This document shows, in pieces, positions 13,448 to 40,818 of a DNA stretch of 50,671 nt (its first letter is position 1; the number at the start of each line of letters is the position of its first letter). Both the position numbers and the translations under genes were made by a program. Below the pieces are notes generated by a model. The model worked only from the letters and a program-made list of their open reading frames with translations. It had not been told where the DNA came from and did no database searches. Source of the stretch: Erysipelotrichia bacterium (GTDB lineage: Bacteria; Bacillota_I; Bacilli_A; Erysipelotrichales; Erysipelotrichaceae); NCBI GenBank assembly GCA_012800355.1, contig JAAZJL010000093.1, positions 1 through 50,671 of the forward strand, in the 5' to 3' direction.

Positions 13448-14149
13448 ATGAGTTTTATAGAATTTAAAAATGTTTCAAAAATATATAAAATGGGTGAAGT
13501 TGAGATAAAAGCTTTAGATGATATTTCATTTGAAGTGGAAAAAGGCGAGTTTGTTTGTGTTTTAGGTGCTTCAGGTGCTGGTAAAACAACAATACTCAAT
13601 ATTTTAGGCGGAATGGATAGTGCAACAAACGGTACTATTATTGTTGATGACAAAGATATTTCTAATGCTGATGATAAGCAGTTATGTGAATATCGTCGTT
13701 ATGATATAGGTTTTGTTTTCCAGTTTTATAACTTAGTACAAAACTTAACAGCTTTGGAAAATGTTGAACTGGCCACTCAAATAGCGGAAGATCCTATGAG
13801 TTCAAGAGAAGTATTAAAAATTGTTGGTTTACAAGATAGAATGCATAATTTCCCATCACAACTTTCAGGTGGGGAACAGCAACGTGTAGCTATTGCTAGA
13901 GCAGTAGCCAAAAACCCTAAGCTTTTACTATGTGATGAGCCAACAGGTGCGTTGGATTACGTGACTGGTAAACAAGTTTTAAAAGTTTTGCAAGACATGT
14001 GCAATAATCATGGTATGACAGTTGTCATGATTACTCATAATGCCGCTTTAGCTGATATGGCTGACAAAGTTATTAGGGTAAAAAGCGGCACAATTAGTAG
14101 CATTAAAATTAATGAAAATCCAAAGGATGTAGAGGATATTGAATACTAA
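13448..14149 (+). CDS. ABC transporter ATP-binding protein (MacB/LolD/FtsE-like)
   Basis: This 233-residue ATPase is of the type that partners FtsX-fold permeases. Walker A is GASGAGKTT, followed by a Q-loop VFQFYNL, signature [14 protein letters not shown], Walker [13 protein letters not shown] and switch His in ITHN. It starts two bases after the TetR stop, and its stop shares a base with the permease ATG (TAATG), so stoichiometric coupled synthesis is likely. Members of this group drive mechanotransmission (MacB-like) across the membrane rather than classical substrate import. Acts with the next gene. Confidence 0.93.
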
Positions 14150-36345: not shown

Positions 36346-37029
36346 ATGATTATCTTAGAGAATGTTTCAAAGATTTATAAAAATGGGACAAAGGCCTTAA
36401 ATGACTTTTCTTTAGAAATACAAGATGGAGAGTTTGTTTATATAATTGGAGAAACAGGTTCAGGGAAAAGCACCCTTATTAAATTATTGAATGGTGAAGA
36501 AATTCCAACAAAAGGAAGGGTTATGGTTGATGGAACAAATGTAGGGCGTTTACGTTTTGGGAAAGTGCCTTTATATCGACGTAAAATCGGAGTAGTTTTC
36601 CAAGATTATCAACTGTTAAAAAAGAAGACTGTCTATGACAATATTGCCTTTGCTTTAGAAGTTATTAATAAATCAAAAGAGGAAGTACGCAATAGAGTAA
36701 AAGAAGTTTTAGAAATTATTGATTTAGCCAATGAGTTTAACAGTTATCCAACTCAACTTTCAGGTGGTCAACAACAAAGAGTAGTTATTGGCAGAGCTAT
36801 TTCCAATAATCCACGTATTTTGATTTGTGATGAACCTACTGGAAACTTAGATCCAAGGCATTCAAAAGAAATTATTGAATTATTAGAAAAAATAAATAAG
36901 TCAGGAACAACAGTTATTGTTGTAACTCATGACGATGTTTTAGTTAATACATATAAAAAGAGAACAATTCTTTTAGATAATGGCAGTATTATTTCAGATA
37001 ATCCTGAAGGAGGCTATATTCATGTTTAG
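36346..37029 (+). CDS. ftsE: Cell division ATP-binding protein FtsE
   Basis: This 227-residue ABC ATPase is the cytosolic partner of FtsX. Walker A is GETGSGKST, followed by VVFQDYQLLKKKTVYDNIAFAL (Q-loop, FtsE-like), signature LSGGQQQRVVIGRA, Walker B ILICDEPTGNLD and H-loop VTHD. ATP hydrolysis drives a conformational change through FtsX that switches on an extracellular peptidoglycan hydrolase. Its stop overlaps the ftsX ATG by eight bases, and the M23 hydrolase follows, which settles the FtsE (not generic ABC) assignment. Confidence 0.95.
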   Translation: MIILENVSKIYKNGTKALNDFSLEIQDGEFVYIIGETGSGKSTLIKLLNGEEIPTKGRVMVDGTNVGRLRFGKVPLYRRKIGVVFQDYQLLKKKTVYDNIAFALEVINKSKEEVRNRVKEVLEIIDLANEFNSYPTQLSGGQQQRVVIGRAISNNPRILICDEPTGNLDPRHSKEIIELLEKINKSGTTVIVVTHDDVLVNTYKKRTILLDNGSIISDNPEGGYIHV

Positions 37030-37918
37030 AAGAATAGGTCGTGCTTTCAAAGAAGCTTGGTGGGGTATAAGGCAACATTTTGCGATGGTATCTTCTACAG
37101 CAGTAACTATTACTATTACATTAGTACTATTGAGTGTTTTAAGTTTGTTAATTGCTAATATTAACCAAATTACTTATGATGTAGAAGAAGAAATTCAAGT
37201 TTTTGTAAAAATAGATGATGATGTTGAAGAAAAAGACATCGATGCTCTTAAAACAAGAGTAGGAAGAATTGCTGGCGTTTCTGATGTTGTTTATTCAGAT
37301 GCTGATTCTGAACTTACTTATTTTATTGAGCAATATGGTGAAGCAGGAAAGATTTTTGAGATTTATCGTAATGACAACCCATTATCTAGAGCTTTTATTA
37401 TTTCTGTAGCTACAGGATATTCAATTTCTGAAGTTTCAAGACAAATTGAAGTCATTGACGGAATTTCAGAAGTAAACTTTGGTGGAGCTACAATTGAAGA
37501 CTTCATCAACTTATTAAACGGAACTAGAAAAGTGGGCTTAATATTTACTGCTTCTTTGGCGGTACTAGCAATCTACTTGATTTATAACACTATTAAAATT
37601 ACAATACATTCAAGAAGAGAAGAAATAGGAATTATGAGACTTGTGGGAGCAACAAATAGTTACATTAGAGTTCCACTTGTTCTAGAAGGAATCTTTATTG
37701 GTATTATAGGTTCAGTTTTTCCTTGTTTGCTGACCGTTTTTGGTTATAAATATATTTATGATGTTATGGACGGACAATTGGTTTCAGGTATATTAAAACT
37801 AATCGATGTATTCCCATTTACTTTGTATGTTAGCGGATTTGTTTTGACAGTAGGAGTTCTTGTTGGTCTGATTGGATCTTGGCTGTCAGCTTCTCGCTCA
37901 TTGAGGTGGAAACGATGA
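37022..37918 (+). CDS. ftsX: Cell division protein FtsX
   Basis: This 298-residue four-TM permease has a first TM near residues 22-45, an extracellular domain to about 165 with the FtsX ECD pattern (EIQVFVKIDDDVEEKDIDAL; NFGGATIEDFINLL), and then three TM helices. GRAFKEAWWGIRQHFAMVSS is the typical FtsX N-terminus. ATG 37022 follows AAGGAGG by eight bases; an in-frame ATG at 36980 is inside ftsE with no ribosome site. The ECD normally binds the coiled coil of the hydrolase encoded next, with which its stop overlaps (ATGA). Confidence 0.95.
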   Translation: MFRRIGRAFKEAWWGIRQHFAMVSSTAVTITITLVLLSVLSLLIANINQITYDVEEEIQVFVKIDDDVEEKDIDALKTRVGRIAGVSDVVYSDADSELTYFIEQYGEAGKIFEIYRNDNPLSRAFIISVATGYSISEVSRQIEVIDGISEVNFGGATIEDFINLLNGTRKVGLIFTASLAVLAIYLIYNTIKITIHSRREEIGIMRLVGATNSYIRVPLVLEGIFIGIIGSVFPCLLTVFGYKYIYDVMDGQLVSGILKLIDVFPFTLYVSGFVLTVGVLVGLIGSWLSASRSLRWKR

Positions 37919-39351
37919 AAATATTTAAGAAGTTTTTTAAATTATTATTAGTTACTTTATGCATACTGATTTCTTTCAGTACTTTTCAAGTTGAAAAAAG
38001 TGTTTTAGCTGAGGATGATGATTTCGAAGATAGATATGAATATTATTGTGAGTTATGTTCAACTCAAACACAGTTGACGGAAGAAGAAAAACAAATTTGT
38101 ATTCGTTTTAGAAATTATGAGCAAAAGAAACTAGATGAATTGAAAGATTTGTTAGATGAAACAGCTGATAATTTAAACAGTTTAAAAGCTAATATTCTTG
38201 CTGAGGGTAGAAAAGTTCAACTACTTACCAATAAAATTGCCTCATTAGAAAAAGAAATAAAAGCGATACAAAATTCAATAGAAATTATAGAAACGAATAT
38301 TGAAGAGCTAAATATTAAAATTGAAGAAAGAAAAATAAAAATTGAAAACTTAAACAATCAAATTAAAGATAGAATGGCTGCAGCGCAATCTAATGTTAGA
38401 ACCAATTCTTATATTAAGTTTATTATGGGGGCTGATAGTTTTATTGATTTATTAAGAAGAATAAGTGCAGTAGCTGAAATTAGCAACTATGATATGCTTA
38501 AAATTGATGAGATGCAAAAAGAAAAAGAATTATTAGAAGAAGATGTTGCAGAACTAGAAACACAAAAATCTAATCTATTTGTTCAACAGACGACTTTAGA
38601 AACTCAAAAAAGCGGTTTAGAAAGGTTAAAAGCTACAACAATAGAATTGATAGAGGAATATGAAAAAAAGGAAGCTGAATTTATTGAGCAGATGGATGCT
38701 TTAGAAGAAGACCGTGGTGAACTTGAAGATAGAATTGATGCAATTAATGCAGCAATTAACGATTTGTATCCTTCTGAAGGCTTTGCTCCGTTTTTTAAAA
38801 ATACTTGTTTTAGAATTTCTGCTGGCTGTTACTACTATTCTAGTGGTGGATTCCATGCTGCAATTGATACTGCAATACGCATTGGAACAAACTTATATCC
38901 AGTATCTAATGGAATAGTCATTGATGCTAGAGGAGGTTGTCCTTATAATGGTGGCTATGTTGGTAATAGATGTAACTATGGTCGTGGTAACTATGTTTTC
39001 TATTTAGCATTAATTGGCAATGAATATTACTTTATTCAATGTGACCATTTGAAAGATATATATGTTGTGAAAGAACAATTATTATATCAAGGCAAGACTT
39101 TAATAGGAACAACAGGAAATAGTGGCAGTTCTTCAGGGCCACATCTGCATTTTGCGATTACTTTCTTAGGAACTACATCTACAACAACTGTTAAAAAAAT
39201 ATTAAGAGATTACATACGTTACGGAAACACTTTCGGATTATCATACCATATTAGAAACGCATGTGTTAATAAAGGATGGAAAGCTCCGTGTTTTGTAAAT
39301 CCAACTGATATCTATGGATATCATTATGGCAAACGTTATTGTGTAGATTAA
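37915..39351 (+). CDS. Secreted coiled-coil M23 (LytM) peptidoglycan hydrolase, EnvC-like FtsEX partner
   Basis: The product has 478 residues. A signal peptide (about 1-31, ...SVLA-ED) is followed by a Cys-containing short segment, a long coiled coil (about 65-285, interrupted near 155-180 by the NSYIKFIMGADSFIDLL hinge found in EnvC/CwlO-type proteins) and a LytM domain (about 295-440). The M23 zinc and catalytic positions are present: H314 and D318 (HAAID), H378 (CDHL), H410 and H412 (GPHLHF). In E. coli EnvC these are degenerate, so this protein may itself cut the wall, gated by FtsEX. GAGGTGG precedes ATG 37915, which overlaps the ftsX stop. A terminator overlaps its stop codon. Confidence 0.9.
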   Translation: MKIFKKFFKLLLVTLCILISFSTFQVEKSVLAEDDDFEDRYEYYCELCSTQTQLTEEEKQICIRFRNYEQKKLDELKDLLDETADNLNSLKANILAEGRKVQLLTNKIASLEKEIKAIQNSIEIIETNIEELNIKIEERKIKIENLNNQIKDRMAAAQSNVRTNSYIKFIMGADSFIDLLRRISAVAEISNYDMLKIDEMQKEKELLEEDVAELETQKSNLFVQQTTLETQKSGLERLKATTIELIEEYEKKEAEFIEQMDALEEDRGELEDRIDAINAAINDLYPSEGFAPFFKNTCFRISAGCYYYSSGGFHAAIDTAIRIGTNLYPVSNGIVIDARGGCPYNGGYVGNRCNYGRGNYVFYLALIGNEYYFIQCDHLKDIYVVKEQLLYQGKTLIGTTGNSGSSSGPHLHFAITFLGTTSTTTVKKILRDYIRYGNTFGLSYHIRNACVNKGWKAPCFVNPTDIYGYHYGKRYCVD

Positions 39352-39375
39352 GGTGCATCTTGTGGCACCTTTTTT
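39350..39375 (+). terminator. Intrinsic terminator after the M23 hydrolase gene
   Basis: AAGGTGC/GCACCTT (39350-39356 and 39365-39371) with an eight-base loop, followed by T5. The stem begins inside the stop codon. Confidence 0.88.
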
Positions 39376-39388
39376 ATTGTGCTAGAAT
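39360..39388 (+). promoter_or_regulatory. Promoter of the S41 peptidase gene inside the preceding terminator
   Basis: An extended -10, TGcTAGAAT (39380-39388), has TTGTGG (39360-39365) 17 bases before TAGAAT. The -35 lies in the terminator loop. The implied leader is about 11 bases, with AAGGTGA at its 5' end. Confidence 0.5.
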
Positions 39389-39405
39389 ATTAAAAGGTGA
39401 TTTAT

Positions 39406-40818
39406 ATGAGAAATTTTTTAAAAGGTTTATTTAAAGTATTATTGGTTGTTCTGCTATGTGCTGTAACATTTGTTGGTGGACTAGTTGTAGGAAGTTATAA
39501 TGGTGGAACAACATTAGATAGAAAGTTTAAAACTTTACAAACAGTACATGAAATATTATTAAACGATTTTTATTTTGGCCAAAGTACAGATGAATATAGT
39601 CAAAAACTAGTGGATGATGCAATTTATGGAATGGTTAAAGCCCAAGGAGATATTCACAGTGAGTATATGAGTGCTAGTGAATTAGCTAAATTTACTGGAT
39701 CACTAGAATCATCTTTTGTTGGAATTGGTGTTACTTATACAGTTGTTGACAATCAAATTTTAGTAGTTAATGTTATAAGATCTTCACCTGCTGAAGCAAG
39801 CGGGGTATTAGCGGGAGATATTATTGTTGCTGTTGATGGAGAAAGTGTAGAGTCAATAGGTGTAGATAATATTGCTGATCGAATTAAAGGTAAAGTTGGT
39901 ACTGAAGTAGTAGTAACGGTTTTAAGAGGAATAGAAAACATTGATATTTCAATTATTAGAAACACTATTTCAAATACAGTATTCTCAGAAGTTATTGATG
40001 GAATCGGGGTTATTACCTTAACATCTTTCTCTGATGGAACTGGCAAAGAGTTTAAAAATCATCTTGATTATTTAAAAGAAAACAATGTAACAAAACTCAT
40101 TATTGATTTAAGAGATAATGGTGGTGGTTATGCCTCAACTTTAAATACAATTTCTTCTTATTTTCTAGATAAAGGCGATATCGTTATGAGAGAGTATGAT
40201 CGAGAAGGTAATGAGATTTTGGATGTAGCAAAAGGTGGCGACAAATATTATTACGATAAGATTATTCTTCTAGCAAATGGTTACTCAGCAAGTAGTTCAG
40301 AAGTGTTTATCTTAGCGATGAAAGAAAACTGCAATGCGATTATTGTTGGTGAAAAAACATATGGCAAAGGTGTTGCGCAAGTTACCAAAATGTTAATGGA
40401 TGGCAGCGCTATTAAGTATACCGATTTAATTTGGAAGAGTGGTAATGGTGTTTATATTGGAGGAACAGGTATTGCTCCTGATTATGAAGTTAAATTACAT
40501 GATGTTCTCTATATGAATTATCTAAATATTGATGAGGGTGCATTTTATCATTACGATACTGTTTCTGATAAAGTAGCTCAAATGCAATTAATGTTGGATT
40601 TTTTAGGCTATGGTGTTGACAGAGTAGATGGCTATTTTTCACAGATGACTAAAGAAGCATTAGTTTCTTTCCAAAAAGACAGAAAACTTGAAGTTAGTGG
40701 TGTTTTAGATGAAGCAAGTGCCAGTGCTTTAAATAGTGCGGTTGCTAGAAGTTGGCAACTGGAAACTGAAAAATATGATACACAGATGAATTTTGCTTTA
40801 GATTTAATTAAACAATAA
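39406..40818 (+). CDS. S41 (CtpA/CtpB-like) serine protease with PDZ and peptidoglycan-binding domains
   Basis: The product has 470 residues. An N-terminal signal-anchor (about 5-28) is followed by a PDZ domain (about 100-180, GIGVTYTVVDNQILVVNVIRSSPAE), an S41 catalytic core with the nucleophile region ANGYSASSSEVF and the catalytic lysine in GEKTYGKGVAQ, and a C-terminal PG_binding_1 domain (about 385-450, VAQMQLMLDFLGYGVDRVDGYF). It probably processes wall-associated proteins outside the membrane. It directly follows the FtsEX-hydrolase genes but has its own promoter. Family relatives cleave or activate wall hydrolases and their regulators, so control of the M23 enzyme is an attractive inference. 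AAGGTGA precedes ATG 39406. Confidence 0.92.
   Translation: MRNFLKGLFKVLLVVLLCAVTFVGGLVVGSYNGGTTLDRKFKTLQTVHEILLNDFYFGQSTDEYSQKLVDDAIYGMVKAQGDIHSEYMSASELAKFTGSLESSFVGIGVTYTVVDNQILVVNVIRSSPAEASGVLAGDIIVAVDGESVESIGVDNIADRIKGKVGTEVVVTVLRGIENIDISIIRNTISNTVFSEVIDGIGVITLTSFSDGTGKEFKNHLDYLKENNVTKLIIDLRDNGGGYASTLNTISSYFLDKGDIVMREYDREGNEILDVAKGGDKYYYDKIILLANGYSASSSEVFILAMKENCNAIIVGEKTYGKGVAQVTKMLMDGSAIKYTDLIWKSGNGVYIGGTGIAPDYEVKLHDVLYMNYLNIDEGAFYHYDTVSDKVAQMQLMLDFLGYGVDRVDGYFSQMTKEALVSFQKDRKLEVSGVLDEASASALNSAVARSWQLETEKYDTQMNFALDLIKQ

What the first reader, a model, noticed from the sequence alone, without database searches (positions are those of the whole stretch)
36346..40818. FtsEX paired with an M23 hydrolase that keeps its catalytic residues, plus an S41 protease
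Known FtsEX partners are degenerate EnvC (activates other amidases), or CHAP and NlpC/P60 hydrolases in Firmicutes. Here the coiled-coil protein has intact H314/D318/H378/H410/H412, so the EnvC-like partner may itself be the endopeptidase. An S41 protease with a peptidoglycan-binding domain follows and could clip the hydrolase or its regulators.
Basis: partly seen in the sequence, partly recalled or inferred. Interest (0 to 1): 0.5.

Follow-up and report, generated by a model that had tools for sequence, protein, structure and literature searches.

The report
FtsEX operon with active-site-intact M23 hydrolase
This is a cell-division control complex (FtsE and FtsX) encoded next to a wall-cutting enzyme that has its own intact M23 active site, an arrangement that proves common and strictly conserved in this bacterium's relatives but for which we found no laboratory study.

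Summary
In detail: ftsE, ftsX, a secreted coiled-coil protein with an M23 domain, and an S41/PDZ/PG-binding protease lie in order at 36346-40818. H314, D318, H378, H410 and H412 are all present, and are invariant in 125 of 125 ftsX-adjacent coiled-coil/M23 proteins compared (97 same family, 28 from five other Bacilli families).

The partner is not EnvC-like. Its stalk is of PcsB type, and related proteins carry CHAP or NlpC/P60 on the same stalk, so this is a catalytic-domain exchange on the known FtsEX-hydrolase scaffold. The window's genome (81% complete) shows no Amidase_3, Amidase_2 or NlpC/P60. Best reading: FtsEX gates this M23 endopeptidase directly. Activity, FtsX binding and autoinhibition were not tested; the structure model resolves only the coil. 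No evidence was found that the S41 protease clips the hydrolase; it sits behind a terminator-like hairpin.

Relatives gave something less expected: 28 same-family genomes carry two diverged ftsX genes, mostly around one hydrolase, and 25 of the 28 have exactly one ftsE over the family cut-off. That suggests two FtsX subunits sharing one ATPase. The window organism has a single ftsX.

The parts
36346..37029 (+). ftsE, ATPase of FtsEX, 227 aa
   Evidence: TIGR02673 272 bits vs cut-off 264.85; only FtsE over the cut-off among the matches listed for G000
37022..37918 (+). ftsX, membrane subunit with extracellular domain, 298 aa from ATG 37022; overlaps ftsE by 8 nt
   Evidence: NF038347 286.8 bits vs 225; Pfam FtsX_ECD 58.9 and FtsX 55.7 bits; start judged
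37915..39351 (+). coiled-coil/M23 FtsEX-partner hydrolase, 478 aa; ATG overlaps the ftsX stop by 4 nt
   Evidence: Pfam CC_PcsB and Peptidase_M23 over cut-off; coordinates
38047..38100 (+). N-terminal cysteine loop (C45, C48, C62) just before the coil
   Evidence: C48 and C62 both present (within 3 columns) in 92 of 97 same-family proteins; a similar Cys pair is visible in the NlpC/P60 and CHAP relatives
38080..38763 (+). antiparallel coiled-coil hairpin, residues 56-283
   Evidence: AlphaFold2 helices 56-162 and 176-283, most blocks with pLDDT over 75; Pfam CC_PcsB at 136-209; PcsB 4cgk match 87-277
38851..39165 (+). M23 catalytic domain, residues 313-417 (H314, D318, H378, H410, H412)
   Evidence: invariance
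39350..39371 (+). terminator-like hairpin between the hydrolase and the S41 gene
   Evidence: 3 found vs 1.4 expected, so weak alone; the same hairpin at the same place in three relatives L036-L038
39406..40818 (+). S41 C-terminal processing protease with PDZ and PG_binding_1 domains
   Evidence: Pfam S41 138.7, PDZ_2 44, PG_binding_1 46.7 bits; the Ser...Lys...Gln motif is visible in the window protein and found in 71 of 73 same-family S41 proteins

Best explanation
ftsE, ftsX and the coiled-coil/M23 gene encode one machine. FtsE hydrolyses ATP under the membrane; FtsX passes the movement to its extracellular domain; that domain grips the PcsB-type coil of the secreted protein, and the coil's movement exposes the M23 zinc active site, which itself cuts peptide cross-links of peptidoglycan during division or elongation. 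It is a direct FtsEX-hydrolase (PcsB/CwlO/RipC logic) in which the cutting head is an M23 endopeptidase instead of CHAP or NlpC/P60. Shown: gene order, overlapping genes, domains, intact and invariant active site, PcsB-type coil, domain exchange on the same stalk in relatives. Inferred: binding to FtsX, gating, autoinhibition, endopeptidase activity and its bond.
For: Domains and cut-offs. Five catalytic residues in the window and in 125 of 125 ftsX-adjacent relatives. ftsX followed directly by coiled-coil/M23 in 96 of 105 same-family loci and in 28 of 40 loci fetched from other families (40 of the 47 full-length non-family hits), in families f7, f11, f12, f22, f26. Coil matches PcsB. Same stalk with CHAP in same-family L173 and NlpC/P60 in sister-family L076 (further NlpC/P60). 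No Amidase_3, Amidase_2 or NlpC/P60 found in the window's genome; of 17 same-family genomes without any Amidase_3 match, the window and 12 others are in the set with the intact M23 partner. The direct-release mechanism for PcsB, CwlO and RipC is proposed in PMC7668044 (passages) and PMC11627006 (passages).
Against: No experiment. The structure model is unreliable for the M23 part (pLDDT under 50 for 285-478), so neither the zinc site geometry nor an autoinhibitory arm could be checked. The genome is 81% complete, so missing amidases could be gaps; 40 of 57 same-family genomes do have an Amidase_3 match. Selection for CC+M23 used an M23 profile at 15 bits or more, which would still admit a domain with a few lost residues but not a wholly decayed one.
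Confidence: 0.78

Rival explanations
1. It works like EnvC: the M23 domain mainly recruits and switches on another hydrolase, and the intact residues are structural or a relic.
For: EnvC has the same layout of coil plus LytM domain (PMC7668044, passages). 40 of 57 same-family genomes have an Amidase_3 match that could be a client.
Against: A relic would not keep all five residues in 125 of 125; EnvC has lost its zinc residues (PMC11627006, passages). No Amidase_3 or Amidase_2 in the window's genome, and 12 other genomes without Amidase_3 keep the intact partner. The stalk is PcsB-type.
Confidence: 0.1
2. The M23 protein is an ordinary autolysin that happens to lie next to ftsEX and is not gated by it.
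For: No binding data. In L155 and L163 the coiled-coil/M23 gene is not directly downstream of ftsX; M23-bearing ORFs lie upstream of yitT in the stretches read there.
Against: Adjacency in 96 of 105 same-family loci and 28 of 40 others, usually overlapping the ftsX stop, and the PcsB-type coil that is the FtsX-binding part in known systems.
Confidence: 0.07
3. The S41 protease belongs to the machine and matures or removes the M23 hydrolase.
For: S41 lies within about 4.7 kb downstream in 71 of 97 same-family hydrolase loci and next to it in f7, most f12 and f26 loci. Its catalytic motif is kept in 71 of 73.
Against: 16 of 97 with more than 4.5 kb of room have none there, 10 are too short to tell. 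In many loci 1.2-3.3 kb of other sequence lies in between. Terminator-like hairpin between the genes in the window and three congeners. None of the 20 f11 or 4 f22 loci shows an S41 gene among the three ORFs listed after ftsX. No cleavage site was or could be tested.
Confidence: 0.2

Closest known systems
PcsB of Streptococcus pneumoniae with FtsEX
   Same: FtsEX partner, PcsB-type coiled coil (Pfam CC_PcsB; solved structure 4cgk matches residues 87-277), catalytic head at the C-terminus
   Different: Head is M23 metallopeptidase, not CHAP; NCBIfam PcsB equivalog not met (38.1 vs 450 bits); gene lies in the ftsEX operon
CwlO of Bacillus subtilis with FtsEX
   Same: FtsEX-dependent coiled-coil hydrolase of a Gram-positive; sister-family relatives here have NlpC/P60 heads on the related stalk
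   Different: Head is M23; no NlpC/P60 found in the window's genome; SweC/SweD cofactors were not searched for
EnvC of Escherichia coli
   Same: Coil plus M23-fold domain driven by FtsEX
   Different: EnvC lacks the zinc residues and acts through amidases (PMC11627006 and PMC7668044, passages); here all five residues are present
EnvC homologue of Fusobacterium nucleatum
   Same: Encoded with ftsX, called membrane-bound metallopeptidase, co-precipitates with FtsX (PMC5915739, passages)
   Different: Gram-negative; 'hydrolase activity', 'zymogram' and 'LytM' occur nowhere in that paper's main text, and its residues were not compared here
SpM23_A of Staphylococcus pettenkoferi
   Same: M23 hydrolase whose gene lies near an ABC transporter resembling FtsEX (PMC8498115, passages)
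   Different: Neighbourhood remark only; no coil or FtsX contact is described in the passages seen

Membership tests
FtsEX-gated coiled-coil peptidoglycan hydrolases (PcsB/CwlO/RipC kind) | Genuine FtsE and FtsX encoded with it | tested here: met
   FtsE and FtsX over curated cut-offs, genes overlapping
FtsEX-gated coiled-coil peptidoglycan hydrolases (PcsB/CwlO/RipC kind) | Long antiparallel coiled coil of the partner family | tested here: met
   CC_PcsB 49.3 vs 27 bits; helix hairpin in model; PcsB match. The Foldseek search gave only generic coiled coils and does not help
FtsEX-gated coiled-coil peptidoglycan hydrolases (PcsB/CwlO/RipC kind) | Intact catalytic head on the same chain | tested here: met
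   Five residues present, invariant in 125 of 125
FtsEX-gated coiled-coil peptidoglycan hydrolases (PcsB/CwlO/RipC kind) | Binds FtsX extracellular domain and is released from autoinhibition by it | not testable with these tools
   Needs protein work; the model of the head is too poor
FtsEX-gated coiled-coil peptidoglycan hydrolases (PcsB/CwlO/RipC kind) | Signal peptide | not tested
   Hydrophobic N-terminus read by eye only; no predictor was run
PcsB proper (NF046104) | Score over the equivalog cut-off and CHAP head | tested here: not met
   38.1 vs 450 bits; no CHAP, M23 instead
EnvC | M23-fold domain without zinc ligands that activates amidases | tested here: not met
   All ligands present; amidase activation itself not testable
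Peptidase M23 | HxxxD, distal His and HxH motifs; Pfam cut-off | tested here: met
   36.8 vs 28.7 bits; residues
Peptidase M23 | Zinc-dependent cleavage of peptidoglycan peptides | not testable with these tools
   Needs enzyme assay
lmo1851-family S41 protease (NF052377) | Score over curated cut-off | tested here: not met
   307.1 vs 725 bits; TIGR00225 prc subfamily is met, 247.4 vs 218.6

The most novel reading that the evidence does not exclude
In a large branch of the window's family, FtsEX has become an asymmetric machine: two diverged FtsX proteins (FtsX1 and FtsX2) pair as a heterodimer over a shared FtsE dimer and hold one M23 hydrolase between two different extracellular domains. The window organism keeps the simpler one-FtsX form.
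Probability: 0.5. Interest if true: 0.65.

Novelty: new variant of a known kind. Interest (0 to 1): 0.42.

Why it matters
The FtsEX partners described in the papers seen here are either enzymes with CHAP or NlpC/P60 heads or an inactive M23-fold activator (EnvC). An FtsEX partner with a complete M23 site shows that FtsEX can be wired to a third kind of cutting head, and that the stalk, not the head, is what evolution keeps: M23, CHAP and NlpC/P60 heads occur on related stalks within one order. This gives a natural series for asking how a coil gates unrelated enzymes. The twin-FtsX relatives offer a test of whether FtsX works as two unequal subunits, in line with the unequal binding sites on EnvC in the published structure.

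Tried and rejected
The Foldseek search with that model returned generic coiled coils (SMC arms and others) and was dropped as evidence.

Disulfides: C48/C62 (both in 92 of 97), C450/C459 (both in 96, neither in 1) and C342/C353 (both in 64, neither in 32, one in 1) behave as pairs, but no VKOR was found in 57 of 57 same-family genomes, DsbA-like matches occur in only 14 of 57 and not in the window's genome, and 33 of 97 proteins have an odd cysteine count. A disulfide-stabilised head is therefore a lead, not a claim.

Operon with the S41 protease: promoter-like scan equals shuffles (25 vs 24.4) and terminators 3 vs 1.4, so only the hairpin shared with three congeners carries weight.

Whether Clostridia have the same arrangement is therefore not tested here. 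Naming f1 as Erysipelotrichaceae rests on two record titles whose contig lengths equal those of G006 and G004; f2 as Coprobacillaceae and f12 as Turicibacteraceae would be recall and guess.

Literature: no paper on FtsEX in Erysipelotrichaceae (0 papers) and none on paired FtsX (listings only, no such title) was found in the open-licence library; subscription papers and preprints are not in it. Other searches.

Full report
What is there. Gene order in the window is yitT, ftsE (36346-37029), ftsX (37022-37918), coiled-coil/M23 (37915-39351), S41 (39406-40818), uvrB, maf. FtsE and FtsX pass the curated cut-offs. The third protein has a PcsB-type coil (Pfam CC_PcsB 49.3 bits, cut-off 27) and an M23 domain (36.8, cut-off 28.7). 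ftsX overlaps ftsE by 8 nt, and the hydrolase start overlaps the ftsX stop as ATGA. Between hydrolase and S41 lies a hairpin followed by T (39350-39371), seen at the same place in L036, L037 and L038.

Where it comes from. The window is contig C47 of a 1.48 Mb assembly, 80.7% complete. The two close named relatives are Erysipelotrichia/Erysipelotrichaceae assemblies (84% and 79% identical hydrolase). I call the window's family f1, as the tool does.

How general. I fetched ftsX loci and called ORFs with profiles built from the window's proteins. Of 105 f1 loci with an FtsX over 250 aa, 96 have coiled-coil/M23 directly after an ftsX, 4 have a coil without a recognised M23 head in the same ORF, 4 have none and 1 has no room. 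The 4 coil-only loci are L173 (CHAP), L138 and L144 (the coil ORFs are only 269 and 117 aa long; read as cut by the contig end, L138's stretch ends at the contig end, L144 not checked further) and L193 (coil and M23 in two neighbouring ORFs). The 4 without are L155 and L163 (see below), L140 (broken ftsX and hydrolase fragments) and L202 (half of G111). In the class sample, 198 genomes were searched for FtsX; outside f1 I counted 47 full-length hits and fetched 40. 28 of these 40 have coiled-coil/M23 next to ftsX: f11 16 of 20, f12 5 of 7, f22 4 of 4, f7 2 of 2, f26 1 of 1; f2 0 of 4 and f24 0 of 2. Absences may also be gene order: the coil/hydrolase of f2 lies elsewhere and carries NlpC/P60.

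Active site. I aligned the 125 ftsX-adjacent coiled-coil/M23 proteins over 330 aa (window, 96 f1 loci, 28 others). All five catalytic columns are H, D, H, H, H in 125 of 125. The choice required an M23 profile score of 15 bits or more. A domain used only as an amidase switch should lose its zinc ligands, as EnvC has (PMC11627006, passages).

Stalk and heads. Compared with solved structures, residues 87-277 match PcsB (4cgk, E 3.3e-5) while the head matches TagE, ShyA and lysostaphin; no EnvC entry is among the 40 matches with E up to 1. Within f1, L173 (genome G134) has CC_PcsB plus CHAP (68.7 bits); in sister family f2, L076 has CC_PcsB plus NlpC/P60 (87.4 bits). These share with the window a cysteine pair just ahead of the coil. 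The head has thus been exchanged on a common stalk.

Possible clients. The window's genome shows no Amidase_3, Amidase_2 or NlpC/P60; with 81% completeness this is suggestive only. It has three M23 loci, this one the weakest scoring. In the family sample 40 of 57 genomes have an Amidase_3 match and 17 none. Of the 17, the window itself and 12 others are in the set with the intact partner; G011 is not in the set, and G022, G078 and G084 have no fetched locus.

Mechanism. The published scheme is that ATP binding in FtsE moves FtsX, whose extracellular domains squeeze the coil and free the head; it was extended by prediction to PcsB, CwlO and RipC (PMC7668044, passages). I place the window's protein in that scheme with the M23 head as the cutter. 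Anatomy is shown; binding, gating and cutting are inferred. The model could not show a restraining arm because its head part is unreliable.

S41 protease. It has S41, PDZ and PG_binding_1 domains and the Ser/Lys/Gln motif kept in 71 of 73 f1 proteins by a relaxed pattern (a stricter pattern gave 50 of 73). It follows the hydrolase within about 4.7 kb in 71 of 97 f1 loci; 16 with room have none, 10 are too short. Neighbourhood is thus common but loose; its substrate is unknown. That Bacillus subtilis also has an S41 gene (ctpB) beside ftsEX is recall, not from a call.

Twin FtsX in relatives. 27 f1 loci hold two ftsX: 20 as ftsX1-hydrolase-ftsE-ftsX2, 3 as ftsE-ftsX1-hydrolase-ftsE-ftsX2, 3 as ftsE-ftsX1-hydrolase-ftsX2, and L173 as ftsE-ftsX-ftsX-CHAP hydrolase; G111 has the same two genes on two contigs. 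Genome-wide, 25 of these 28 genomes have exactly one FtsE over the cut-off (the three with two are G012, G072, G081), with a clear gap from 268 to 229 bits down to other ATPases. In a quick tree all FtsX1 except that of L173 group together and all FtsX2 except that of L173 fall in another group, with support of 90 (FtsX1) and 98 (FtsX2 plus one single-ftsX row, L140, and G111's second contig); a few single-ftsX rows lie near the FtsX2 side, so the exact number of duplications is open, and L173 is a separate case. The two copies diverge in step (r = 0.87 over 325 pairs, not corrected for shared ancestry). Either ftsE has been lost: the tree needs 4 changes for the first and 1 for the second (starred branches alone force fewer). 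Both FtsX keep motifs of the membrane part near FtsE (EI.IMR.VGA). Four genomes (G012, G072, G081, G115) have yet another ftsX plus hydrolase without its own ftsE in the stretch read (L059, L198-L200). The simplest reading is that one FtsE serves two FtsX. Whether they form a heterodimer or two separate homodimers cannot be told from sequence.

Verdict. The finding is real and its main idea is probably right, but for an ordinary reason: it is a PcsB-type FtsEX partner with an M23 head. As a variant it is widespread, and I found no laboratory study of it in the searches. Papers were seen as search listings, except PMC11627006, PMC7668044, PMC5915739, PMC6705773, PMC8498115 and PMC6403190, of which matching passages were read.

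Noticed in passing
L051, L054-L057, L060, L063, L127, L128, L130, L132, L136, L137, L150, L162, L167, L170, L171, L175, L176, L178, L181, L186, L187, L189, L195, L173; L202/L203: Two diverged ftsX genes, mostly around one M23 hydrolase; 25 of 28 genomes have one FtsE over the family cut-off. Suggests two FtsX sharing one ATPase.
   Followed up: partly
L059, L198, L199, L200: A further ftsX plus coiled-coil/M23 hydrolase without its own ftsE in four genomes that already have twin ftsX.
   Followed up: no
L173:7250-8575 (-): Same-family locus with a CHAP head on the PcsB-type stalk after two ftsX.
   Followed up: partly
L129, L131: Two coiled-coil/M23 hydrolases in tandem after one ftsX.
   Followed up: no
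L193: Coil and M23 head lie in two neighbouring ORFs, as if the hydrolase were split.
   Followed up: no
L155, L163: ftsEX is followed directly by S41; M23-bearing ORFs lie upstream of yitT, as if the hydrolase had moved.
   Followed up: no
window 38047-39342: The mature hydrolase has 11 cysteines; several behave as pairs across the family although no VKOR is found in it.
   Followed up: partly
genomes G022 and G084: No candidates at all in FtsX, Amidase_3, VKOR and DsbA searches despite high stated completeness; their data may be unusable.
   Followed up: no
window 13457-14089: A second FtsE-like ABC ATPase in the window, well below the FtsE cut-off (210.5 bits).
   Followed up: no
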